In this document: positions 16,851-59,624 of the stretch, piece by piece
Layout: every line of letters begins with the position of its first letter
Position numbering within the stretch: the stretch's first letter is position 1
Source of the DNA: a virus
Virus record (IMG/VR): IMGVR_UViG_3300028007_000002
Coordinates: 1 to 61,501 of that record
Strand: one strand, 5' to 3'
DNA length: 61,501 nucleotides
Program-made: the position numbers and the translations under genes
Notes under the pieces: generated by a model
The model's input: the letters and a program-made list of their open reading frames with translations, nothing else
What the model was told of the DNA's origin: nothing
The model's database searches: none

Positions 16851-16859
16851 TGCCGTCGC

Positions 16860-16888
16860 GAGAGGCCGGAGCCCGAGAGGCCGGAGCC
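16860..16888 (+). repeat. Intergenic repeat GAGGCCGGAGCC, copy 2
   Basis: Two tandem units GAGAGGCCGGAGCC(C) in the leader of the first tail tube gene. A GAGGAGG ribosome binding site follows at about 16898. Confidence 0.65.
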
Positions 16889-17624: not shown

Positions 17625-17649
17625 GCCGCGACGCCAATTGAAAAAAGGT

Positions 17650-17676
17650 AGGCCGGAGCCCGAGAGGCCGGAGCCC
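17650..17676 (+). repeat. Intergenic repeat GAGGCCGGAGCC, copy 3
   Basis: TAGGCCGGAGCCC and GAGAGGCCGGAGCCC in tandem, in the leader of the second tail tube gene; AAGGAG follows. Confidence 0.65.
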
Positions 17677-18098: not shown

Positions 18099-18124
18099 TC
18101 CCTGACGCGATCCCACACCTGGCC

Positions 18125-18152
18125 CGAGGCCGGAGCCTATGAGGCCGGAACC
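18125..18152 (+). repeat. Intergenic repeat GAGGCCGGAGCC, copy 4
   Basis: GAGGCCGGAGCC and GAGGCCGGAACC in tandem before the tail assembly chaperone gene; the least conserved copy apart from the capsid one. Confidence 0.6.
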
Positions 18153-18712: not shown

Positions 18713-18744
18713 CCGAGAGGCCGGAGCCCGAGAGGCCGGAGCCC
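18713..18744 (+). repeat. Intergenic repeat GAGGCCGGAGCC, copy 5
   Basis: Two perfect tandem units GAGAGGCCGGAGCCC just before the hairpin at the tape measure start. Confidence 0.65.
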
Positions 18745-37590: not shown

Positions 37591-37626
37591 AAGAAGCCTG
37601 TTCACCCCTGAATGAACAGGCTTCTT
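37591..37626. terminator. Bidirectional terminator between accessory block and CRISPR operon
   Basis: AAGAAGCCTGTTCA (37591-37604), loop CCCCTGAA, TGAACAGGCTTCTT (37613-37626). A perfect 14-base stem between converging transcription units; the last bases of cas6e overlap it. Confidence 0.85.
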
Positions 37627-38309
37627 CAATCACGGGGAATCAGACCGATCGAGAGCAGGCCGAAGCCAAAGGCTTTGCCCGACCCGATGCCCTGACGCAG
37701 CGTGGCGCGGAACCGATCGGCGTCGGTGATAACCAACTCCCCCGCGAAGAGCACCGATCCGAATGTCAGCCGGCCGGGCGAGGCCGGCTTGCCGTCCCCA
37801 GTCTGTTTGATCTCCGGGGTGACGGAGTGTTGGGCGAGCCGGAAGCCGCCGGCCTCGCCCTTACGAATGAGCCAGGCGATCTGTTCGGCCTCGGCGCGAA
37901 ACACGATCCGTTTGCCGTTCCAGCGGCTTGCCTCGACGCGGTTAGCAGGCAGGCGTTTGGTGGGATTGGCACGGAGCCGGAAACGCAGACGATCGCCGGC
38001 CCGAAGGCTCTCCCAATACCCATGGTGCGACTCGACCGCGGGGTTGCGGATCAGCCTGCCGGCCGTATCGGCCAAGTACTCGGACCACAACCGCGACCAA
38101 TCGGGATACACTGCCGATTGAACAATGACGACCAAGCCATCCTCCGGCCACTGATCGACGCGATAGAGTACACCGAGAGTTGCGCGGGCATCCGGATTAA
38201 TCATCTCGGGAAAGGCGCTCAGGATGGTCCGATGAAGTTGTCGGCAATCGGCCAGATCGCGCCGGACATGCGGATCGCTGAGATTGAGGATCAGGCGGGA
38301 CAGATACAT
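37626..38309 (-). CDS. cas6e: CRISPR endoribonuclease Cas6e (CasE)
   Basis: A 227-residue protein with the full Cas6e pattern. MYLSRLILNLSDP at the start; DCRQLHRTILSAFP with His26 at the place of the catalytic His of characterised Cas6e; VLYRVDQ and VIVQSAVYPDW; LRAGDRLRFRLRANPTKR; and the C-terminal glycine loop GIGSGKAFGFGLLSI. Cas6e cuts type I-E pre-crRNA at the repeat hairpin. No other type I-E gene (cse1, cse2, cas5e, cas7e, cas3) is present. It is the last of nine coupled genes, starting in a TGATG overlap with the cas6 gene. Confidence 0.92.
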   Translation of the reverse strand: MYLSRLILNLSDPHVRRDLADCRQLHRTILSAFPEMINPDARATLGVLYRVDQWPEDGLVVIVQSAVYPDWSRLWSEYLADTAGRLIRNPAVESHHGYWESLRAGDRLRFRLRANPTKRLPANRVEASRWNGKRIVFRAEAEQIAWLIRKGEAGGFRLAQHSVTPEIKQTGDGKPASPGRLTFGSVLFAGELVITDADRFRATLRQGIGSGKAFGFGLLSIGLIPRD

Positions 38310-39070
38310 CAGTCCGCCTGCACGGGAAGTATCTGAGGGCAAACAGCGGTAGGACGACGGAGGGGAGCTGGGGTCTCCCACACGCTGACCGGATCGCCTT
38401 CACGCCATCGCTCATACTGTGCGAGGATGCGCAGTCGGCCGTACCCGTAACCGGTCTGATGTCCAACACCGCGATACTCGCCGAACCGAAACAGCGTCCA
38501 GACAATGGCCTGCTGCTCAGGCTCAAGTCGCCAGAGATCAAAGCGCACCAGCCCCAGGAATCCCAATCGTCGCTCTCCGGCGGCCCCAGTCCCCGGACGC
38601 TGCAACAGATCACCGACTGGCGCAACCGCGATGCGGCGCAACGCGACGTCGGGCAGTTCGGGCGTCTCTAGCCAGCCGAGCGCATTCCACCGTAGGGTCA
38701 GACTTCGGTAGATCTTGCTGTACTCGGGAATTAGATGATCGTTGTCGCTGGTCCGAAATCGGGTCGGTGTCGTGAAAGCGATCCAGATCGCTTTGCCGCC
38801 CGCCGGCTGACAGAAATCAGCCATGCGCACCCGTCGAATCAGCCGCGCGGCGGGTTCACCAGACAAGAGCGCCTGGGCGATGTCGTCCTGGCAGGCTATC
38901 ACATCCAAACTGGTTTGCCGTCGAACAACCGAGTAAGGCCGGACTTCATCCGGGTGATGAAGTCGCTGGGCGAGATCGAGATCGACCCGACCAACCGTGG
39001 AAATCACGCGCTCGATCGGGTCAGATTGATAGCCGGGGTAGGGCAGGCGGACAACGGTGATAGCAGTCAT
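38309..39070 (-). CDS. cas6: CRISPR endoribonuclease Cas6
   Basis: A 253-residue protein of the Cas6 family found in type I-A/I-B/I-D and type III systems. The central WIAFTTPTRFR and SLTLRWN elements are typical. The C-terminal domain has LGFLGLVRFDLW and GEYRGVGHQTGYGYGRLRI, the glycine-rich loop. It would cut CRISPR repeat RNA. A second, differently classed Cas6 (Cas6e) directly follows, an arrangement I do not know from any described operon. The catalytic residue cannot be fixed without alignment. Starts in an ATGA overlap with the methyltransferase gene. Confidence 0.85.
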   Translation of the reverse strand: MTAITVVRLPYPGYQSDPIERVISTVGRVDLDLAQRLHHPDEVRPYSVVRRQTSLDVIACQDDIAQALLSGEPAARLIRRVRMADFCQPAGGKAIWIAFTTPTRFRTSDNDHLIPEYSKIYRSLTLRWNALGWLETPELPDVALRRIAVAPVGDLLQRPGTGAAGERRLGFLGLVRFDLWRLEPEQQAIVWTLFRFGEYRGVGHQTGYGYGRLRILAQYERWREGDPVSVWETPAPLRRPTAVCPQILPVQAD

Positions 39071-39873
39071 TCGAGACGCTCCACGGCAAGATCGCGCTGA
39101 GTAGCCAGGTCGAGGGCCCAGGCCACCAACCGAGGATCCCGCTCCATCCCGAAACACCGCAGGCCGATCGACTCAGCGGCAATCAGGCTAGTGCCCGCTC
39201 CGAGATAGGGATCAAGGATGTCCCCCTCACGGTGAGTGTTCTGGATCAGGCAACGGATCCAGTCCTCGGGTTTCTGGTGGGCGTGGATCGCGCGGGCATG
39301 AAACGCCGGGAGCTGCTCGACGTAGAGATCGCTGAGCACATGGCCCGGTGTCTCGTGGCGCGAGGGATATTTCGCGGGATCACCGTAGCGTCCGAAATCA
39401 CGGTAGTCCTCTCGCTGCCCGTACCAAAAACAGAGCTTCATCCGCTGCAACGGCCGCCCCGAGCGCGGCCAGGAGGCGACGCAGTCCCAGACAAAGATCC
39501 AGGCCGGGGCACCGAACAAACGGATCGTGTCACCCGCCCACCGCCCATCGCAAAACGCCAGAATGGTCCGCCATTCCCCGGCGGGCGGGGTCAAACCGGC
39601 CTCCCAAGGAGGATCGAATATCAGCGTGGACGGACACGCATCTCCCAGCAGCCTGGCGACCTGGTGCGGAGCTGTACTGTCACCACACAGCACCCGGTGC
39701 TGGCCGATCCGCCAAACCTGGCCAGGCTCCACCTGCCAGCGCGCTTGAGCGAGGGTGAGAGCGAGATCGCGTCGCGTCTGGGTCTGCGTATTCAGGCGAA
39801 TAATCCCACCTCCGGGAAGCGGGTGAGGAATTGCTGCCAAAGATCGGGATAGTGCAGCTTCAGGTAAGCCCAC
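39067..39873 (-). CDS. DNA methyltransferase (N6-adenine/N4-cytosine, class beta order)
   Basis: A protein of up to 268 residues. Motif IV, FDPPWEAG, precedes motif I, DILDPYLGAGTSLIAAESIG, the order of class beta enzymes; ERDPRLVAWAL follows. The N-terminal WRIGQHRVLCGDS is a common lead-in of phage and plasmid methyltransferases. It probably methylates DNA; the target is unknown and no partner restriction enzyme is seen. It lies inside the CRISPR operon between cysH-like and cas6 genes. The start is unsure: the given one overlaps cysH by 82 bases, and an ATT after GGTGGG near 39801 would remove most of that overlap. Confidence 0.85.
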   Translation of the reverse strand: MGLPEAALSRSLAAIPHPLPGGGIIRLNTQTQTRRDLALTLAQARWQVEPGQVWRIGQHRVLCGDSTAPHQVARLLGDACPSTLIFDPPWEAGLTPPAGEWRTILAFCDGRWAGDTIRLFGAPAWIFVWDCVASWPRSGRPLQRMKLCFWYGQREDYRDFGRYGDPAKYPSRHETPGHVLSDLYVEQLPAFHARAIHAHQKPEDWIRCLIQNTHREGDILDPYLGAGTSLIAAESIGLRCFGMERDPRLVAWALDLATQRDLAVERLE

Positions 39874-40544
39874 CGGCCGTGACGCCGGTTCGTCTCACCG
39901 GCCCAATAGCTGATCCGCCGGTCGCGCGCCGGGCGATCGCCCATCACGTCATAGGCTCGGTTGTAATCCACGTTACGACTGACCAGGTAGGCCCAGATAT
40001 CGTCATGGGTCCAGCGGCCGACCGGCAACGCCTCCCGGATGCCCTCCCGCTGGTTGAAAAACAGCAGGCCCCGCGTTCGGACCAACATCCGGCGGCCGGG
40101 GGATTCGTCGCCACGCAACCCCAATACCACGGCATCGTAGTAGCGCTCTGCCAGCAACCGGCGCACGGGCTCATAGACGGTGCCCCACATCGTCGCGTCC
40201 TCGACGCCCGGTGCATCCGGCCCGCCGGCCGCGGCGAGGATGTCCAAGAAGGGCCGGCAAGGAAACTTCTCGACCGGTCGCCCGGCGGCGATTAGGACAT
40301 CGAGTCGGGCGCGTGATTCGGGGAAGGCGCAGTCGGCATCGAAGTAGATCGCCGGAACCGTGGGCGCCTGCCGCCAGACCAGATCCAGAACGACTTCCGA
40401 ATCCTTCCCGGTCGAGTACCCCACGTAGGGATTCCGGGTATCAGTCAATACCCGCTCAATAACCGCGTTCGCCTCGTCGAGCCGGCGCGCAAAGGCCCGC
40501 GTCCGAGCGTGGGCCAGAAAGCCGGCTCGTTCCAACGGCGTCAT
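39792..40544 (-). CDS. CysH-like PP-loop enzyme (PAPS reductase family)
   Basis: A 250-residue protein. The PP-loop is YVGYSTGKDSEVVLDL near residue 35; IYFDADCAFPES and LGLRGDESPGRR are further family motifs. The Cys of the classic sulphate-assimilating CysH C-terminus (ECGLH) is missing, so simple PAPS reduction is unlikely; ATP pyrophosphatase-type chemistry on a nucleic acid or nucleotide is possible. CysH-like genes are the known companion of type IV-B CRISPR systems, with unknown role. The ATG at 40544 is chosen for its ATGA overlap with the glycosyltransferase gene. Confidence 0.85.
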   Translation of the reverse strand: MTPLERAGFLAHARTRAFARRLDEANAVIERVLTDTRNPYVGYSTGKDSEVVLDLVWRQAPTVPAIYFDADCAFPESRARLDVLIAAGRPVEKFPCRPFLDILAAAGGPDAPGVEDATMWGTVYEPVRRLLAERYYDAVVLGLRGDESPGRRMLVRTRGLLFFNQREGIREALPVGRWTHDDIWAYLVSRNVDYNRAYDVMGDRPARDRRISYWAGETNRRHGRWAYLKLHYPDLWQQFLTRFPEVGLFA

Positions 40545-41155
40545 GACGCGGCCGGGCTCCAGGTCTTCGCCTGTCGCACGTACTGCCCGTAGAGCAGGGG
40601 CGGACAACCAATGACGCTGGGCAGGTCGAGGCGATGCTGGACCAGACTCGGTGACGTCTGCCAGATCGATTCTGACTGGTGGGCCAGAAAGTCTGCCAAG
40701 AGCACGTCCGACCAGTGACGATGTTCAGCGAGATGCGGCTGAATCCACTCGACGAGCCGGTCGGCCAGGTCTCGGGTCAGCGCCACCGCCTGGTCATTAC
40801 AAAATTGGCCGGCCGGCTGCTGCCACCAACGATCACCACGCGCCAGGGCGTCCGCGACCGATCGGCGCTGGGAGTAGAAGCTGACGGCCCGCGCTCCGAG
40901 GTCCTGAGCTTCTCGGAGTCGTGCCACGGCACGGGCCGGGAAATCGTCGCAGAGCAGGATGTCGTCCTGAAGGACTCCCACCCAGGCGGCGCCGGTCTCG
41001 ACGCCAGCCTGCCAGGCCCGCAGCATGGTGACGCGGTTTCCTGCGTGGTCAGTGTCCTCGATGACCCGCAGGCTGGGGATTTGCGCCCGGAGGAACTCGA
41101 CCGACCCGCACCGCTCCGGGACGGCCATCATGACCCAGGCGCACGGGAGGCTCAT
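40541..41155 (-). CDS. Glycosyltransferase-like protein
   Basis: A 204-residue protein. The N-terminal SLPCAWVMMAVPERCGSVE and central AAWVGVLQDDILLCDDFPAR match small phage glycosyltransferase-fold (GT-A) proteins, in which QDDI takes the place of the metal-binding DxD. Substrate unknown; DNA-base or protein glycosylation is possible. It lies inside the type IV operon, coupled on both sides by ATGA overlaps, which I do not know from described type IV loci. Confidence 0.7.
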   Translation of the reverse strand: MSLPCAWVMMAVPERCGSVEFLRAQIPSLRVIEDTDHAGNRVTMLRAWQAGVETGAAWVGVLQDDILLCDDFPARAVARLREAQDLGARAVSFYSQRRSVADALARGDRWWQQPAGQFCNDQAVALTRDLADRLVEWIQPHLAEHRHWSDVLLADFLAHQSESIWQTSPSLVQHRLDLPSVIGCPPLLYGQYVRQAKTWSPAAS

Positions 41156-41904
41156 CTGTCAACCTCCTGCCAGTCTGGGGGCAGCAGGCAGGGGTGATGC
41201 CAGTCGGTCTTCCACACCGGTGGAGTCCAACCACGCGGGGCGATGGCCGCCCCATCCGGGATCGAGGGCATCTCGGAGAGGGCGCCAATGGGCACCGGCC
41301 GCGATCGGAGGATGATCGCTTTGGCCTCTTCGAGTGACATGTTGAGCATCGTTTCGACCTGCCAGTGTCGGACCAAACCCCGGCCGATAGACGCCGCTTT
41401 GCTCACGTGCGTCAGGCGGCGAATCAGATCCATGGCTGTCTCGCGATGCCCGATTGCCAGAGCGGCCAGTGATTTTGTGGCGATCAATGGGATCGCAGTG
41501 CGTCTCTCGGCCCAACGCCCGGTGGAGGTTTGCGCGTTGGGCCGCTCGCAGAGCCAGACCCGGTCGCGTGGGTGGCGTTTGTGCGTGTATTCGATGAAGG
41601 GGTGGAATTTCCCGACCGGCCGCAGATCGCTGGTGGCCCAGAGCGGCAGCCCCTCCGGCGATTGCCAGATCAATTCGATGGGGAGGGGGAAAATTAACCC
41701 CTCGGGCGGAAATTCCGGTTCGACCGGCAACGAGAGTTTGAGCCCCAAGGCCAGCCGCGTATCGAGAGGCACGGCCGGCCCATCGAAGCCCCGCACGTAG
41801 GGGGTTTCCAACGTGCAACTCACGAAAAACGGTTCTTTTGGGAGATCGGCGTACTCCCAGGCTCGCGCTTCGAGGCCGGGGACGATCGCGGCTATCGGGC
41901 GCAT
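41152..41904 (-). CDS. csf3: Type IV Cas5-like protein Csf3
   Basis: A 250-residue protein. The second half has the Csf3 pattern: KSLAALAIGHRETAMDLIRR and LTHVSKAASIGRGLVRHWQV, the glycine-containing loop of the Cas5 group, which holds the 5' crRNA handle. N-terminal FVSCTLETPYVRGFDG is the RAMP-type first strand and loop. The ATG at 41904 overlaps csf2 by 13 bases and has GGAG just upstream; a longer frame from 42069 would lie inside csf2. ATGA overlap with the glycosyltransferase. Confidence 0.85.
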   Translation of the reverse strand: MRPIAAIVPGLEARAWEYADLPKEPFFVSCTLETPYVRGFDGPAVPLDTRLALGLKLSLPVEPEFPPEGLIFPLPIELIWQSPEGLPLWATSDLRPVGKFHPFIEYTHKRHPRDRVWLCERPNAQTSTGRWAERRTAIPLIATKSLAALAIGHRETAMDLIRRLTHVSKAASIGRGLVRHWQVETMLNMSLEEAKAIILRSRPVPIGALSEMPSIPDGAAIAPRGWTPPVWKTDWHHPCLLPPDWQEVDR

Positions 41905-42908
41905 AGCTCCAGACTCGTGCCGAAAGTCCCATCCAACAGTCCCGCTCGCATCTGGTCTTTGTTGCGGGCCAGGTGGGCCAGATAGGGCTCGCTGTCGGGA
42001 AGGTCGGTGCAGAGGATCTGCATCAGGCCACGCCCCTGCCGGCTGCTCCCGCCAAAATAGCGATCCCATTTCTCGATCGCCTTGGCCAGCGCGGCGACCG
42101 TGACGGGGGACGTCTGCTGATCGAGGGTGAACCGCACGACGAATTTCACCCCCGAGGCGAGCGCCTCGTAGCTGTAGAGCATCTGGTTTCCGGATGATTC
42201 CGCGCCGGTCCCGCGGGTTCGGGTCTCTTCGTACAGGCAGTTGCGGATCCGTAGTCGGCGGGCTTCTTCCAGCAGGTCTTGCCCGAGAAACTGGCTGGCT
42301 GGCTGGAGGTAGGAAAAGTGCTGAAGGGTCCCGAGGTACTCCTGAGTGATCGGGAATATGTTGACCTTGAGGCGGCCGGCCGGCAGCATGAAGCGATCGA
42401 CCGAACCACCCAGGAGGTCAATGCTGGGATACCTGCTGCGAACCAATCGCCCCAGGGAATCCCGGCTGGTTGGCGCGATTTTACCTGCCGCGATTGCGCC
42501 GCCCGAGTAGAGCAGGTTCAGGGTCGCCTGCGACAATTGGCCTTCTTGGGCATAGAGCAGATCGGTTGCCGGTGAAAGCGCCGCCTGGACGCCGGCCGGC
42601 AAGGCGCCCCCTGCAAGGTCCAGCGTCTCGATCAGGTGATCGGCAAGGGGCCGACGAACTGCAACGGCCCGGAAGGCATTCTCGGAGAGCGTGGGGTAGC
42701 GCGGCGGATCCGTCCGGGTTGCATCGGTTTGGTCGGCCAACGGACGCCGCAGGAATAACGTTTTGTTCGTGCTGGTGTTGAGGCCGACCACGGTGTCACC
42801 GTGAACGATCGGCGACAGGTTTTGCAGGATCAGGTGGTAGCGCAGGCCGTAGGGTTCGGCGATGAGAATGCGCGACTGGCTCGGGGCCATCATCAGGGTG
42901 GCGGTCAT
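41892..42908 (-). CDS. csf2: Type IV Cas7-like protein Csf2
   Basis: A 338-residue backbone subunit. It begins with a RAMP-type strand (YHLILQNLSPIVHGD), and the centre has LSENAFRAVAVRRPLADHLI and NLLYSGGAI, which are typical of Csf2. The C-terminal QTSPVTVAALAKAIEKWDRY and FGGSSRQGRGLM complete the fold. It would polymerise along RNA. GGAGGAAACCG stands before the ATG. Confidence 0.88.
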   Translation of the reverse strand: MTATLMMAPSQSRILIAEPYGLRYHLILQNLSPIVHGDTVVGLNTSTNKTLFLRRPLADQTDATRTDPPRYPTLSENAFRAVAVRRPLADHLIETLDLAGGALPAGVQAALSPATDLLYAQEGQLSQATLNLLYSGGAIAAGKIAPTSRDSLGRLVRSRYPSIDLLGGSVDRFMLPAGRLKVNIFPITQEYLGTLQHFSYLQPASQFLGQDLLEEARRLRIRNCLYEETRTRGTGAESSGNQMLYSYEALASGVKFVVRFTLDQQTSPVTVAALAKAIEKWDRYFGGSSRQGRGLMQILCTDLPDSEPYLAHLARNKDQMRAGLLDGTFGTSLELCAR

Positions 42909-42941: not shown

Positions 42942-43358
42942 TCAAGCGAGGATTTGTGATGGCTCAGGCTGGGCGCCACGTTTGCGGTGATGCTGCTGGC
43001 GAGCAATTTGGACGAGGCTGGCCGATCGCTGGATGATCGTTTGGATTGCCTCCGCCCCATTCGGTTGACTCCAGAGCTTAATCAGGGGACCGTCTGCCGT
43101 CAGAGGAGGGCAGGGCCATCCCATTGCTTGGAGCAATCGTGACCAGAACTCCATCAAGGTGTCTGACTGATTGGCGCATTCGTACGCCTTCTCGCTGAGT
43201 GATTCATACCGCCCGACGCCCGACAGCAGACCGAAGCTCCCCGGACTGTAGATGTCCAAAGCGATCGTGAGGATATCGACAGCGAGGCGTTGCCCAGGGG
43301 TGGCCTGAGCCATCAACTCGTCGATCGCCGCGTAGAGTTCCGCGTTGGGATCATTCAC
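42942..43358 (-). CDS. cas11: Type IV small subunit, Cas11-like
   Basis: A 138-residue all-helical protein between csf1 and csf2, the place of Cas11 in type IV-B operons. The GTG at 43358 has GAGAGGAG upstream and overlaps the csf1 stop. Sequence alone (LYAAIDELMAQATPGQRLAV, AEAIQTIIQRSASLVQIARQ) is not diagnostic; the assignment rests on order, size and helical nature. Confidence 0.7.
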   Translation of the reverse strand: MNDPNAELYAAIDELMAQATPGQRLAVDILTIALDIYSPGSFGLLSGVGRYESLSEKAYECANQSDTLMEFWSRLLQAMGWPCPPLTADGPLIKLWSQPNGAEAIQTIIQRSASLVQIARQQHHRKRGAQPEPSQILA

Positions 43359-44040
43359 TGGCTGTCTCCTCTCGGGATGTGGCAATCAAGGCTGGCAGAA
43401 AGGCCGGATCTCGGCGGAGCCCCCTCAGGTCACTTTCGAGGGCGTAGGCAATAGCGGGTGCCTTCTCAAACGACTTGTGGCGGCCGAGATCCCTGGCGAT
43501 CGTGCGTTTGCTGAAGCCCAGTGCCAACGCTTCACCAATCGTCTGTCCAATGTCGAGCGCTCGGCGGGCAGAGAAACTGACCCAGAACCCGGCGTTGTAT
43601 TCCGGCGTGTTGAGGAAAAGCCCAAAGGCGCCGGCCGTCGAGACGTGCGTCTTGGTCCAAAGGCGTGGCTTCGGATCGGTGGTGAGGACGCCGGTCGTGG
43701 GGGTGAGGAGATCGGCGTCCGCAACGCGCTGAAACATCTCAGACCATTGAGGACGATGGGGTTGGGCAGGATCGGCCTTGATCAGGGGCCAGAATAGGTT
43801 ATTGCCGAGCGCCAGAACGGCCCGGTTCTTCTGTTTGGGCTGCGTATACATCCACGCGCAGGCCGGGCAACTCTGCGTCGTTACCTTCGGATCGCCTAGC
43901 GGGTGGCTCGCCCGCTCCGTAACCACGATGTGGCAGGTGCCGCATTTACCGGGACTTGGCTCCAGCGGCCACTCGGCCGCTGGGCATCCCGCCGCCCGCC
44001 AGATCAGCCAAGAGCTCGCGAGGTGGTAGTTTGCGTCCAT
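43351..44040 (-). CDS. csf1: Type IV signature protein Csf1
   Basis: A 229-residue protein with the Csf1 zinc finger near residues 32-62 (KCGTC, then SCPACAWMY) and LALGNNLFWPLIKADP. A helical C-terminal half follows. Csf1 is the large-subunit-like component of type IV complexes. The ATG at 44040 gives the natural start; an upstream frame from 44076 runs through the promoter. First gene of the nine-gene operon. Confidence 0.85.
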   Translation of the reverse strand: MDANYHLASSWLIWRAAGCPAAEWPLEPSPGKCGTCHIVVTERASHPLGDPKVTTQSCPACAWMYTQPKQKNRAVLALGNNLFWPLIKADPAQPHRPQWSEMFQRVADADLLTPTTGVLTTDPKPRLWTKTHVSTAGAFGLFLNTPEYNAGFWVSFSARRALDIGQTIGEALALGFSKRTIARDLGRHKSFEKAPAIAYALESDLRGLRRDPAFLPALIATSREETASE

Positions 44041-44047
44041 GCTCAAA

Positions 44048-44076
44048 ACAATAATCACTCTAGAGCAATTAATCAA
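44048..44076 (-). promoter_or_regulatory. Putative promoter of the type IV operon
   Basis: On the minus strand, TTGATT (44076-44071), 17-base spacer, TATTGT (44053-44048), in a distinctly AT-rich gap. Transcription would start about at the csf1 ATG, so the message may be leaderless. TAGAG/CTCTA in the spacer forms a short palindrome. Confidence 0.45.
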
Positions 44077-44144: not shown

Positions 44145-45893
44145 CTAAGCAGTTGGCTGAACAGAGGTGATATCCTGCCGGACGTACCAATACTCACCGA
44201 CCCGAATGGCCTTCAGCCGGCCTTCGGTGACCCTCCGCCAGAGGCGGCCATACCCGATGCCCGTCTGGCGGGCGAGCTCTGGTAGGCTCAGCAGACGGTA
44301 CTGTGTGCTCAGTCGGAACGAATCAATGTGATTGCAGTCATTGCGGTAATACGAAGTGTCCGCAATACCAGTGGAGCTTTCACCGGCCGGCCGCCTAAAT
44401 CGGTAGCGCGGGTTCAAATGGTACTCGCCGCGCCGACTGGGTTCCACGATCACCTTCTCGACCAGCAACTCCATGAGCATCCGCTTGGTCTCCGGCGTGG
44501 CCTTGTCAGCCTTCCCCTGCAACGCGGCGAGGAGTTCAGCCACCCCGCGGATTCGTGCCTTCTCCTCCTCTCGCTGAGCCCGCGCGTTCTCCAAGACCAG
44601 TTTGCGGCCGGCCAGATCATCCCGCTCCCGAGCTGAGGCGATCAGTTGCGCCTCCCCCTCAGCCTCTGAGATGAGCCCCTTCCTAATCAGCGAAATGACA
44701 CGGGAGCGCTCAGCCTCCACCCGCTGGAGTGCCCGGCTCAGGGCATCAAGCTCGGCCTCTCCTTCCGCGCCGGTCAGGTCATTGACCTGCGTCATCAGTT
44801 TCGCGACCAAGTCGCCTGGCCGATCAATCCAGTCCCGAATGTCCGACCAGACGACGTCCTCGACGAGTTCCACCCGGACATCGGGATTCGGACAGCGGTA
44901 CTGACCACACCGGTAGTAGGCGATGTGATTCTGGTTCGTCTGAGTCAGGCCAGAGTACCGCCGACCACAGATACCGCAATCAATCAGGCCGCGCAGGAGG
45001 TACAGCCGCTTGGCGTTCCTTGATGACATTTTCCAGTTCAGCGGGCGCAATTCCTGGGCTCGATCCCACGTCGCCCGATCGAGGATCGCTGGGACCTCCT
45101 GAGTAATGGTCTGTTTGCTCTTACTCTGGCGGCCGATGCGGCGCTCGCCCATATACGTCGGGTTCTTCAACATCATGAGGACCCGTGTGTGATCCCAGTG
45201 GTCTACGAGCTTGATCCGCTTGCTAGTGATCCCTCGCCGGGTGCTTTGTGTCGCCACTCCCAATGCATTCAGCCGCTCAGCGATGGCATAGGCGCTGAGC
45301 CGCTCTTCGTTGTACCAACGGAAGATCTGCCGAACGATCTCCGCCTCTTCTTCATCAATGACTAACTTCTGATCAAGGACCCGATAACCGAGGGGAGCCC
45401 GACCTCCTGTCCAGTATCCCTCCCGGGCCTTTCGCCGACGGCCAAGGCTGGAGCGCTGGACGATAGAGTCGCGCTCATAGGCGGCCACCATGGCCAAGAT
45501 GCCCATGACGAACTCGCCGAAAGGATTGCTCGTGTCAAAGGGTTCCGTGAGGCTCCGAAATGCAACGCCGCAGCGTTTGAGTGCATCGTGGGCCGACAGG
45601 ATAATCATGCCCGTTCGGCCGATGCGGTCCAGTCGGTAGACGACCACCTGCTCGAACTGGCCCGCCTTGGCATCGGCGAGGATGCGGGCGCCGGCCGGCC
45701 TCTGCTCGATGGGAATCGTGCCGGGAACGCCGTCGTCGAGGTATGTCCCGACGATCGTCATCCCGAGTGCAGGGCAGATCGCATTGGCCGCTTCGATCTG
45801 GTTCTGGATCGACTCACGTTCGATCTGATCTTCGGACGAGACGCGGGCATAGAGAGCCACCCGCGGGGATGCGGGTGGTGATACACTGGACAC
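44145..45893 (-). CDS. Large serine recombinase with C-terminal excisionase-like domain
   Basis: A 582-residue protein. Residues 10-150: resolvase catalytic domain with YARVSSEDQ (nucleophilic Ser), VYRLDRIGR and AYERDSIVQRSS. Residues 170-290: recombinase domain (GRAPLGYRVLDQKLVIDEEE, NPTYMGERRIG). Zinc ribbon: LIDCGICGRRY then YRCGQYRCP. Coiled coil near 390-460. Unusual C-terminus: residues 530-580 (LSLPELARQTGIGYGRLWRR, GRLKAIRVGEYWYV) are a MerR/HTH_17-type excisionase-like DNA-binding domain. It may integrate the phage, and its own fused domain may control direction. AGGAGG lies seven bases before the GTG start. Confidence 0.9.
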   Translation of the reverse strand: MSSVSPPASPRVALYARVSSEDQIERESIQNQIEAANAICPALGMTIVGTYLDDGVPGTIPIEQRPAGARILADAKAGQFEQVVVYRLDRIGRTGMIILSAHDALKRCGVAFRSLTEPFDTSNPFGEFVMGILAMVAAYERDSIVQRSSLGRRRKAREGYWTGGRAPLGYRVLDQKLVIDEEEAEIVRQIFRWYNEERLSAYAIAERLNALGVATQSTRRGITSKRIKLVDHWDHTRVLMMLKNPTYMGERRIGRQSKSKQTITQEVPAILDRATWDRAQELRPLNWKMSSRNAKRLYLLRGLIDCGICGRRYSGLTQTNQNHIAYYRCGQYRCPNPDVRVELVEDVVWSDIRDWIDRPGDLVAKLMTQVNDLTGAEGEAELDALSRALQRVEAERSRVISLIRKGLISEAEGEAQLIASARERDDLAGRKLVLENARAQREEEKARIRGVAELLAALQGKADKATPETKRMLMELLVEKVIVEPSRRGEYHLNPRYRFRRPAGESSTGIADTSYYRNDCNHIDSFRLSTQYRLLSLPELARQTGIGYGRLWRRVTEGRLKAIRVGEYWYVRQDITSVQPTA

Positions 45894-57294: not shown

Positions 57295-57351
57295 ATGCAA
57301 GTCCAGATTACCCGATCCGAGGCGACCTCGCGCGAGCACCCGACATGGTGA
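57295..57351 (+). CDS. Possible 18-residue leader peptide
   Basis: An ATG with a strong GAGGAGA site five bases before it opens an 18-codon frame that ends (ACATGGTGA) across the start codon of the following gene. The following gene has no clear ribosome binding site of its own, so the short frame may couple its translation. Confidence 0.4.
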   Translation: MQVQITRSEATSREHPTW

Positions 57352-59624
57352 GCAATCGCCTTGACGATACCTACCGCGCCTTTCTGGCCAGAAAACGCGT
57401 CCAGGCTCAACCCGTCGGATTCACGGTGGATCGCAGCGCATTGAATCCAGCCCTATTCGACTGGCAGCGGGATATCGTGGAGTGGGCGATTCGACGTGGC
57501 CGGGCTGCTCTGTTTCTCGATTGCGGTCTCGGCAAAACGCTGATCCAACTTGAGTGGGCGCGGCACATCGTGGCTCAGGTCGATCGGCCGGCGCTGATAT
57601 TGGCGCCGTTGGCCGTGGCCCAGCAGACCGCTCGTGAGGGTGACAAGTTCGGCATTCAGGTCACGGTTTGCCGGACACAGGCCGACATTCGGCACGGCAT
57701 CAATATCGCCAACTACGAAATGCTCCAGCATTTCGACCCGTCCGGATTCGGAGCGTTGGTTTTAGATGAATCATCGATCCTGAAATCTTACGACGGGCCA
57801 ACTCGTAAGGCGATCACGGAGTTTGGCCGGTCGATTCCGTTCCGACTTGCCTGCACGGCCACGCCCGCGCCGAACGACTTGATGGAACTGAGCAATCACG
57901 CCGAGTTCCTCGACATCATGACCGGCAAGGAAATGATGGCCCTGTTTTTCACTCAGGACGGGAACTCCACTCACCAGTGGCGACTCAAGGGCCATGCTCG
58001 GCAGGACTTCTGGCGGTGGATGGCATCATGGTCGGTTGCCATGCGCAAGCCATCGGATATCGGCTATCCGGACGCCGATTTCATTCTGCCACCGCTCCAC
58101 ATGCATCAGGTGACGGTGGGCGTCAGTCAGCCGACGGCAACGCTTTTCCCAGTCGAGGCACTGACGCTTCAAGAGCGACAGCAGGCCCGGCGCGAAAGCA
58201 TCAGCGATCGCGTGGCAGCGACAGCGAACCTCATCAACAACTCGCCTGAGCAATGGCTGGTCTGGTGCAACCTGAACGCGGAATCCGAGGCGTTGGCAAA
58301 GGCGATTCTCGGTGCGGTGGAGGTGACCGGCTCTGACACGATTGCCCACAAAGAGCAGGCGTTGCTTGATTTCGTATCCGGGCGGGCACGCGTGCTGGTG
58401 AGCAAGAGCACGATCTTTGGGTTTGGCCTGAATCTCCAGAACTGCGCCAATGTGGCGTTCGTTGGCCTCTCCGATTCCTACGAGCAACTCTATCAGGCGA
58501 TCCGGCGCTGCTGGCGATTTGGGCAGACCCGGCCGGTCAACGTGTACCTGATTACCGCTGAGACGGAGGGTGCGGTTGTGAAGAATATCGCGCGAAAAGA
58601 GCGACAATCTGCCGAGATGTTTGACCAGATTACGGCCAATATGGCGGGGCTTCAACTCTCCTCGGCCGAACGGTCGGAGATGGCCTACGAGGAATCAGTC
58701 GCCTACGGAAAAGGGTGGACTCTCTATCTCGGCGACAGCGTCCAACAGTTGTCCAATGTGGCGAGTGAGACAGTTGGATTGTCTGTGTTCTCGCCGCCCT
58801 TTCCCGGCATGTACGCCTACACGAATTCTCCACATGACATGGGCAATGTGCGCGGGATTGAGGAATTGATCGAGCAGTACAGCTACCTGATCCCGGAACT
58901 GCTCCGCGTGACCATGCCCGGCCGGTCGGCTTGTGTCCACCTGACACAGGCAGTCGCGTTCAAAGGCACTGACGGCTATATCGGCCTCAAGGATTTTCGC
59001 GGTGCCGTGATTCGGGCGATGGAGGCCGGCGGCTGGATTTATTACGGCGAGGTCTGCATCGACAAAAACCCGCAGGTGAAGGCGATTCGAACGAAAGACC
59101 GCGGCCTGTTGTTCAAAACGCTGGCTAATGATTCCAGTCACATGCACATGGCACTGGCTGATTACCTGCTGCAATTCCGCAAGCCGGGCGATAATCCGCA
59201 GCCAATCCGGGCCGGGATCAGCACGAAATATCAAAACGAGTCCGGCTGGATTACCGCCGATGAATGGATCGAATGGGCGGCTCCGGTCTGGTATCGGGCC
59301 GATGCCGGCATTCCGGGTGGAATCCGGGAAACTGACGTGCTCAACGTGGTGCAGGCCCGTGAAACGGATGACGAACGCCACCTCTGCCCGCTGCAACTAG
59401 GCGTGATTGAGCGGGCGATCAAACTCTGGAGCAATCCGGGCGATTTAGTTCTTGATCCCTTTGCGGGCATCGGCTCAACCGGCTTTGAGGCTCTGAAGCA
59501 CGGCCGACGGTTTGTCGGGTGTGAACTAAAACCGTCGTACTTCCGGTCAGCTTGCATCAACCTCGACCGGGCAGTGTTTGAGCGCAATCAGCCAACCCTC
59601 TTTGACGTGGCGGCGGGATCATGA
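57345..59624 (+). CDS. SNF2-like helicase fused to DNA methyltransferase
   Basis: A 759-residue two-part protein. Residues 35-440: SF2/SNF2-type helicase with FLDCGLGKTLIQLEWARHIV (Walker A), LVLDESSIL (motif II, DESS), LACTATPAPND (motif III) and YQAIRRCWRFGQTRPVNVYL (motif VI). Residues 450-755: N6/N4 methyltransferase with LYLGDS, VFSPPFPGMY (motif IV, SPPF) and LVLDPFAGIGSTGFEALKHG (motif I). The order IV before I is class beta. The fusion would couple DNA translocation with modification; it may protect phage DNA or act in replication. No nuclease domain is visible. Confidence 0.88.
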   Translation: MVSNRLDDTYRAFLARKRVQAQPVGFTVDRSALNPALFDWQRDIVEWAIRRGRAALFLDCGLGKTLIQLEWARHIVAQVDRPALILAPLAVAQQTAREGDKFGIQVTVCRTQADIRHGINIANYEMLQHFDPSGFGALVLDESSILKSYDGPTRKAITEFGRSIPFRLACTATPAPNDLMELSNHAEFLDIMTGKEMMALFFTQDGNSTHQWRLKGHARQDFWRWMASWSVAMRKPSDIGYPDADFILPPLHMHQVTVGVSQPTATLFPVEALTLQERQQARRESISDRVAATANLINNSPEQWLVWCNLNAESEALAKAILGAVEVTGSDTIAHKEQALLDFVSGRARVLVSKSTIFGFGLNLQNCANVAFVGLSDSYEQLYQAIRRCWRFGQTRPVNVYLITAETEGAVVKNIARKERQSAEMFDQITANMAGLQLSSAERSEMAYEESVAYGKGWTLYLGDSVQQLSNVASETVGLSVFSPPFPGMYAYTNSPHDMGNVRGIEELIEQYSYLIPELLRVTMPGRSACVHLTQAVAFKGTDGYIGLKDFRGAVIRAMEAGGWIYYGEVCIDKNPQVKAIRTKDRGLLFKTLANDSSHMHMALADYLLQFRKPGDNPQPIRAGISTKYQNESGWITADEWIEWAAPVWYRADAGIPGGIRETDVLNVVQARETDDERHLCPLQLGVIERAIKLWSNPGDLVLDPFAGIGSTGFEALKHGRRFVGCELKPSYFRSACINLDRAVFERNQPTLFDVAAGS

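What the first reader, a model, noticed from the sequence alone, without database searches (positions are those of the whole stretch)
37626..39070. Two different Cas6 families side by side in one operon
Cas6 (generic, with TPTRFR, SLTLRWN and GVGHQTGYGYG) and Cas6e (with LHRTIL and GIGSGKAFGFG) belong to different CRISPR classes of repeat processing. Having both, coupled and without an array, suggests that the phage processes two different host repeat types in trans, or that one of them has another RNA target.
Basis: partly seen in the sequence, partly recalled or inferred. Interest (0 to 1): 0.82.

Follow-up and report, generated by a model that had tools for sequence, protein, structure and literature searches.

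The report
Phage type IV-B with two Cas6s
A bacterial virus carries a guide-RNA (CRISPR type IV-B) complex of the kind defined as having no RNA-cutting enzyme of its own, yet here it has two different, apparently intact ones and no guide array, which suggests that it makes guides from its host's CRISPR arrays.

Summary
At 37626-39070 (minus strand) lie an intact cas6e (227 aa) and an intact generic cas6 (253 aa), overlapping by 1 nt. Both keep the invariant family histidine (Cas6e His26, 44/44 aligned; Cas6 His38, 32/33 homologs) and the glycine-rich loop.

They are not a free pair. They are the 3' end of a tailed phage's type IV-B operon: csf1-cas11-csf2-csf3-glucosyltransferase-cysH-methyltransferase-cas6-cas6e, beside the serine recombinase. 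A profile of its Csf2 family matches only the type IV-B Csf2 structure (7jhy, E 1.4e-8) convincingly. I found the same core in ten more IMG/VR phage contigs and one Dehalococcoidia genome. One of them (L107) has an independently acquired cas6e between csf3 and cysH; none has both.

IV-B is described as lacking Cas6 and array, so this is a new variant of a known kind. I found no array, mini-array or solitary repeat in the contig. The window's Cas6e nests among Cas6e of ordinary type I-E systems. Best explanation (about 0.45): the phage processes host pre-crRNAs of two repeat types in trans and loads them into its Csf complex, or denies them to the host. The mechanism is inferred, not shown. The host is probably Chloroflexota but is not proven.

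The parts
37626..38309 (-). cas6e (227 aa): pre-crRNA endoribonuclease of the type I-E family
   Evidence: PF08798 1.7e-52, TIGR01907 7.4e-25; 37-39% to T. thermophilus Cse3 and homologs; His26 invariant in 44/44, G-loop kept, nested among I-E Cas6e
38309..39070 (-). cas6, generic family (253 aa)
   Evidence: PF10040 1.5e-13; T. thermophilus Cas6A 4c8y 1.2e-8 over residues 92-214; His38 conserved in 32/33 homologs
39067..39873 (-). DNA methyltransferase-like ORF (DPPW motif; start uncertain)
   Evidence: PF01555 5.3e-8, phrog_498 1.2e-21
39792..40544 (-). cysH-like (PAPS-reductase family, motif STGKDS); ORF open from 40607, likely ATG at 40544
   Evidence: PF01507 3.6e-13; 38% to the G015 CysH in the same operon position; conserved in the phage operons except the truncated L109
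40541..41155 (-). glucosyltransferase-like protein
   Evidence: phrog_854 3.7e-12; syntenic counterpart in G015, about 30% in a global alignment
41152..41904 (-). csf3 (Cas5-like); ORF open from 42069, likely start 41904
   Evidence: PADLOC typeIV_Cas5 1.5e-19; 38% to G015
41892..42908 (-). csf2 (Cas7-like backbone subunit)
   Evidence: PADLOC typeIV_Cas7 4.1e-25; 47% to G015, 41-44% to ten phages; family profile hits IV-B Csf2 7jhy at 1.4e-8
42942..43385 (-). cas11 (small subunit; start uncertain)
   Evidence: 40% to G015, same position in nine of ten phage contigs (L104 is truncated); the L107 counterpart hits typeIV_Cas11 at 1.1e-3
43351..44040 (-). csf1 (Cas8-like large subunit with a four-cysteine zinc finger); ORF open from 44076, likely ATG at 44040
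   Evidence: PADLOC typeIV_Cas8 0.007 only, but 40% to G015 and 29-36% to phage Csf1; CxxC...CxxC invariant; the L107 counterpart hits Csf1 at 3.2e-9
44145..45893 (-). large serine recombinase, next to the operon
   Evidence: PF00239 2.7e-32, PF07508 1.3e-19
37591..37626 (-). 16-bp hairpin right after cas6e, probably a two-way terminator between convergent genes
   Evidence: MFE -29.7 kcal/mol for 66 nt, z -4.3; not I-E-repeat-like

Best explanation
Shown: a tailed phage carries a type IV-B CRISPR effector operon (Csf1, Cas11, Csf2, Csf3, CysH-like) with two translationally coupled, apparently active pre-crRNA endoribonucleases of different families (Cas6 and Cas6e) at its 3' end, and no array in its 61.5 kb. 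Inferred: with the operon expressed (it lies beside the recombinase, so possibly from the lysogen), Cas6e cuts host type I-E pre-crRNA and Cas6 cuts the other host repeat type (I-A/I-B/III-like). The resulting crRNAs are assembled into the phage's Csf complex through Csf3 (Cas5-like) and Csf2. The phage then either uses host spacers against competing elements or takes crRNAs away from host Cascade/Csm. Two Cas6 enzymes widen the range of host arrays that can be tapped.
For: Gene identities and order; Csf2 family profile matches only the solved IV-B Csf2 convincingly, not IV-A. Both Cas6 keep the invariant histidine and G-rich loop and are coupled by overlapping start/stop codons. The window Cas6e nests among I-E Cas6e whose loci carry 29-nt GTNGTCCCC-type repeats. 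A second phage IV-B (L107) has a very different Cas6e at another place in the operon, so recruitment of Cas6e by phage IV-B probably happened at least twice. No array, mini-array or solitary repeat to explain the maturases in cis. In 301 Chloroflexota genomes 66 hold this Cas6 family, 24 hold Cas6e and 7 hold both, among them G015, which also carries the closest sister IV-B locus.
Against: The one IV-B complex studied (Mycobacterium JS623), co-expressed with I-E Cas6 and array, bound mostly non-CRISPR RNA and did not enrich crRNAs (PMC7937560). Nine of ten sister phage cassettes have no cas6 in the sequence available, so the core does not need one. The host is not identified, and no spacer or repeat ties this phage to any I-E or Cas6-dependent array. 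The contig is linear without terminal repeats, so an array could lie in missing sequence.
Confidence: 0.45

Rival explanations
1. Anti-CRISPR by maturase decoy and RNA sponge: the phage Cas6 enzymes bind and cleave host pre-crRNA and keep the 3' hairpin, and the Csf filament soaks up the products, so host Cascade/Csm is starved or poisoned; no target is ever recognised by the phage complex.
For: Same anatomy; Cas6 stays on the crRNA hairpin in I-E-like systems (PMC8616872); sponge function has been proposed for IV-B (PMC8175902); phage Racr RNAs work by derailing Cas6/Cas7 (PMC10651486); the JS623 IV-B RNP binds RNA without sequence preference (PMC7937560).
Against: Active-site residues are kept, which a pure decoy would not need; the full Csf core with Csf1, Csf3 and CysH is also kept.
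Confidence: 0.27
2. The system has its own array on sequence missing from this contig (or used to), and the two Cas6 process that array in the ordinary way.
For: The record is linear and may be a fragment; a viral IV-B with a mini-array is known (Fuxivirus, PMC10848311).
Against: No repeat of any kind near the operon; structural, replication and recombinase modules are all on the contig; one array would not need two Cas6 families.
Confidence: 0.13
3. The Cas6 pair acts on non-CRISPR RNA, for example cutting phage or host transcripts into pieces of fixed length for loading into the Csf complex, or regulating the operon.
For: The JS623 IV-B complex carries heterogeneous RNA of uniform length (PMC7937560); a strong hairpin follows cas6e.
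Against: Cas6 enzymes are repeat-specific as a rule; the hairpin looks like a terminator and not like an I-E repeat; the window Cas6e is close to I-E enzymes.
Confidence: 0.1
4. Passenger genes: cas6 and cas6e were captured by chance and have no role.
For: Only one of eleven viral cassettes has the pair; no close relatives to test selection.
Against: Both ORFs are intact with conserved invariant residues, coupled starts, and a separate Cas6e acquisition exists in L107.
Confidence: 0.05

Closest known systems
Type IV-B CRISPR-Cas (Mycobacterium sp. JS623; csf1-cas11-csf2-csf3 plus cysH)
   Same: Core genes and order, CysH-like gene, carriage by a mobile element, no array; Csf2 profile hits the JS623 structure 7jhy
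   Different: IV-B is described as lacking any crRNA maturase (PMC8175902, PMC7937560); here there are two, plus a glucosyltransferase and a methyltransferase
Fuxivirus IV-B with mini-array (archaeal virus, PMC10848311)
   Same: Virus-borne IV-B effector operon with CysH-like gene and no adaptation genes
   Different: Fuxivirus has a mini-array and no Cas6 is mentioned; here there is no array and two Cas6
Type IV-A / IV-D / IV-E systems with Cas6, Csf5 or Cas6e
   Same: Csf-type complex with a Cas6-family maturase; IV-A is known with Cas6, Csf5 or Cas6e (PMC8175902)
   Different: IV-A has a CRISPR array and DinG, IV-D a RecD-like helicase; here CysH and Cas11, no helicase in the operon, no array, and two maturases at once
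Type I-E Cas6e/Cse3 (T. thermophilus, E. coli)
   Same: Sequence family, catalytic histidine, G-rich loop; nested in the I-E tree
   Different: No other I-E gene found next to it in the phage; linked to a Csf operon
Phage RNA anti-CRISPRs (Racr) and other phage-borne CRISPR parts
   Same: Phage use of CRISPR parts around Cas6 and crRNA
   Different: No solitary repeat here; the phage carries the enzymes, not the RNA

Membership tests
Type IV-B CRISPR-Cas | csf1, cas11, csf2, csf3 in one operon | tested here: met
   csf1 and cas11 rest mainly on conservation with G015 and phage homologs, weak HMM hits for the window proteins themselves
Type IV-B CRISPR-Cas | Csf2 of the IV-B kind | tested here: met
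   profile A11 hits 7jhy (IV-B Csf2) at 1.4e-8 and no IV-A Csf2 chain; no full subtype tree was possible
Type IV-B CRISPR-Cas | CysH-like gene linked | tested here: met
   PP-motif S-x-G-K-D-S kept in the homologs
Type IV-B CRISPR-Cas | no CRISPR array | tested here: met
   (for the contig only)
Type IV-B CRISPR-Cas | no cas6/csf5 maturase | tested here: not met
   two Cas6-family genes in the operon; hence 'IV-B-derived variant', not plain IV-B
Cas6e (TIGR01907/PF08798) | family score, catalytic His, G-rich loop | tested here: met
   Tyr23 of T. thermophilus is Arg here, a position that varies in the family (Y in 23 of 44)
Cas6e (TIGR01907/PF08798) | cleaves I-E repeats | not testable with these tools
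   needs an enzyme assay
Cas6, generic (PF10040) | family score, N-terminal histidine, C-terminal G-rich loop | tested here: met
   a single-sequence AlphaFold model was unusable (pLDDT 35)
Type IV-A | DinG helicase and array | tested here: not met
   no DinG in the operon, no array

The most novel reading that the evidence does not exclude
A phage-encoded type IV-B complex that makes its own guides by processing two kinds of host CRISPR arrays in trans with two Cas6 enzymes, that is, guide hijacking across CRISPR types. This would answer where at least some IV-B complexes get their guide RNA.
Probability: 0.4. Interest if true: 0.87.

Novelty: new variant of a known kind. Interest (0 to 1): 0.68.

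Why it matters
What RNA type IV-B complexes carry, and why, is an open question: they are described as having no array and no maturase, and the one studied complex bound random RNA. A phage whose IV-B operon carries two intact maturases of different families, and a second phage that gained a Cas6e separately, point to host crRNA as the guide source and give a concrete pair of enzymes and substrates to test. If true, it is a phage strategy that turns host immune memory of more than one CRISPR type to the phage's use.

Tried and rejected
Close relatives of the two Cas6 and of Csf2 alone in viral contigs and phage records: none near. First genome-contig scan with a four-sequence Csf2 alignment: nothing confirmed. 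Array, mini-array or I-E-like repeat in the window: rejected. Spacer matches to name the host: only partial, chance-level matches. JS623 plasmid records by accession: not in the collection. AlphaFold model of Cas6 from one sequence: pLDDT 35, not used. Csf2 tree to decide whether the two Cas6-bearing phages are sisters: unresolved. Portal search in Chloroflexota for the host: 31% matches over most of the protein, no better than actinophages. That the Cas6 pair is a decayed remnant: rejected.

Full report
OBSERVATION. The window is an IMG/VR virus record of 61,501 bases, linear, no end repeats, with terminase, portal, head, tape-measure, tail and helicase genes of a tailed phage and a large serine recombinase. 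At 37626-38309 and 38309-39070 on the minus strand lie two complete ORFs. The first is Cas6e (PF08798 1.7e-52; TIGR01907 7.4e-25, above cut-off), the second a generic Cas6 (PF10040 1.5e-13, above cut-off; TIGR01877 below its cut-off). cas6 starts inside the stop of the preceding gene (ATGA) and cas6e starts in the stop of cas6 (TGATG), so the three are likely translationally coupled. GC by codon position is that of phage coding sequence.

ARE THEY INTACT? In an alignment of 44 Cas6e, mostly from I-E loci, the histidine equivalent to T. thermophilus His26 is invariant and present in the window, and the glycines of the C-terminal loop are all kept; the neighbouring Tyr23 of T. thermophilus is Arg here, at a variable position. 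In 33 relatives of the generic Cas6 the best conserved N-terminal residue is a histidine (32/33), present here as His38, and F99, P102, F105, G173, L193, G203, G209 and G211 are kept too. That these histidines are catalytic rests on established work on these families; it was not tested here.

WHAT IS AROUND THEM. Upstream on the same strand, closely spaced or overlapping: csf1 (43351-44076), cas11 (42942-43385), csf2 (41892-42908; typeIV_Cas7 4.1e-25), csf3 (41152-; typeIV_Cas5 1.5e-19), a glucosyltransferase-like gene (phrog_854 3.7e-12), a CysH/PAPS-reductase-like gene, and a DNA methyltransferase. The serine recombinase is next upstream. Csf1 and Cas11 of the window score weakly or not at all against HMM libraries; they are assigned by their conserved position and by 40% identity to the sister locus below, and their counterparts in phage L107 do hit Csf1 and Cas11 models.

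RELATIVES. A PADLOC Csf2 search in genomes that hold near Cas6e found one close sister: Dehalococcoidia bacterium KatS3mg060 (G015) with csf1 40%, cas11 40%, csf2 47%, csf3 38%, a gene at the position of the glucosyltransferase (about 30% in a global alignment) and cysH 38% in the same order, and no cas6 or methyltransferase after cysH. It was the only hit at E<=1e-12 among 400 Chloroflexota genomes drawn. A Csf2 alignment from these two then found ten IMG/VR phage contigs (L100-L104, L107-L111) with csf1-cas11-csf2-csf3-cysH, as far as each contig reaches (L104 and L109 are truncated). PHROGs hits show that L101, L102, L104 and L107 sit in phage genomes, some right beside terminase or portal genes. 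Searching the whole ten records for PF10040 and PF08798 found Cas6 only in one: L107 (G660) has a 173-aa Cas6e-family protein (PF08798 6.5e-13, PADLOC Cas6e 1.5e-15) between csf3 and cysH, with the N-terminal histidine and G-loop kept. In the Cas6e tree it is on a very long separate branch, whereas the window's Cas6e nests among ordinary I-E enzymes (53% to the nearest, within a group rich in Chloroflexota and Bacillota; supports moderate). The two acquisitions look independent, also by their different positions in the operon. L107's operon too is near an integrase.

WHICH SUBTYPE? A profile of the phage Csf2 family hits one Csf2 chain in the PDB, 7jhy, the type IV-B complex of Mycobacterium sp. 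JS623 (E 1.4e-8), and no IV-A Csf2. With Cas11 and CysH and without DinG this is the IV-B core. But IV-B is described as lacking a Cas6 and an array (PMC8175902, PMC7937560; the array also in PMC11656645), so one stated feature is not met. I call it a IV-B-derived variant. Viral IV-B systems as such are known: 'some prophages' (PMC11656645), lytic phages (cited in PMC10848311) and Fuxivirus with a mini-array (PMC10848311). I found no description of a IV-B operon with a Cas6, nor of two Cas6 families in one; the library holds only open-licence papers, and the 2020, 2021 and 2022 surveys by Pinilla-Redondo, Moya-Beltran and Al-Shayeb were not readable.

NO GUIDE ARRAY. Direct-repeat searches, a spacing-aware array finder, a two-copy mini-array search and BLAST of the repeats from related I-E loci all found nothing array-like or repeat-like in the window. 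The strong hairpin just after cas6e (37591-37626; z -4.3) has a 16-bp stem with AAGAAG/CUUCUU ends, lies between convergent genes and reads as a terminator. The contig may be incomplete, so 'no array' is a statement about 61.5 kb.

MECHANISM. Two intact maturases with different expected repeat specificity, coupled to an RNA-binding Csf complex and with no substrate in cis, are best explained by substrates in trans: host pre-crRNAs of type I-E (Cas6e) and of a Cas6-dependent type (I-A/I-B/III). Both kinds exist in Chloroflexota: of 301 genomes, 66 hold this Cas6 family, 24 Cas6e and 7 both, not far from the 5.3 expected if independent, and G015 itself is one of the 7. Whether the phage then uses the guides (inter-element competition, superinfection exclusion) or denies them to the host (anti-CRISPR) cannot be told from sequence. 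Against loading stands the JS623 experiment, in which a IV-B complex ignored co-expressed I-E crRNAs (PMC7937560), though Csf1 and Csf3 were not resolved in that complex and its operon has no Cas6 of its own. The window's operon is a natural case where that experiment could come out differently.

HOST. Not proven. Near Cas6e, the sister IV-B locus and GC content suggest Chloroflexota; the portal is about equally near actinophages (35% to a Streptomyces phage) and Chloroflexota prophage-like portals (31%); no convincing spacer match.

VERDICT. Observation confirmed; interpretation partly supported and made more specific. New variant of a known kind; interest 0.68, rising to about 0.87 if guide hijacking is shown.

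Noticed in passing
L107:11475-11996 (IMGVR_UViG_3300026534_000004): A second phage IV-B operon has a strongly diverged Cas6e gene between csf3 and cysH, with no array found in the 43 kb record.
   Followed up: partly
L100-L104, L107-L111 and L098/L099 (G015:C2:192343-196771): A family of phage-borne IV-B cassettes (csf1-cas11-csf2-csf3-cysH), in several phages set directly beside terminase or portal genes rather than in a lysogeny region.
   Followed up: partly
L111:11532-15508: Between csf3 and a CysH lie a second, larger CysH/DndC-like protein, a ParB-like protein and a DPPW methyltransferase; haloarchaeal plasmid loci L003/L004 have DUF3440, ParB-like and PAPS-reductase genes after csf3. 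A ParB/CysH/methyltransferase module seems to recur with IV-B.
   Followed up: no
window 57345-59624: One 759-aa ORF matches DNA helicase profiles in its first half and DNA methyltransferase profiles in its second half: a helicase-methyltransferase fusion.
   Followed up: no
window 16859-16888, 17646-17675, 18123-18152, 18714-18743: A 15-mer (CGAGAGGCCGGAGCC) in tandem pairs recurs around structural-gene boundaries upstream of the tape-measure gene.
   Followed up: no
L002:7089-7512 (Thermoanaerobacterium plasmid): A type IV locus with csf1, csf2, csf3, cas6 and a RecD-like helicase (IV-D-like) has a 7-repeat CRISPR array between csf2 and csf3.
   Followed up: no
window 44483-44504: Partial match (22 nt, 1 mismatch) to spacer 74 of the I-E array in L042 (Myxococcales MAG); weak, near chance level given 1668 spacers searched.
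   Followed up: no
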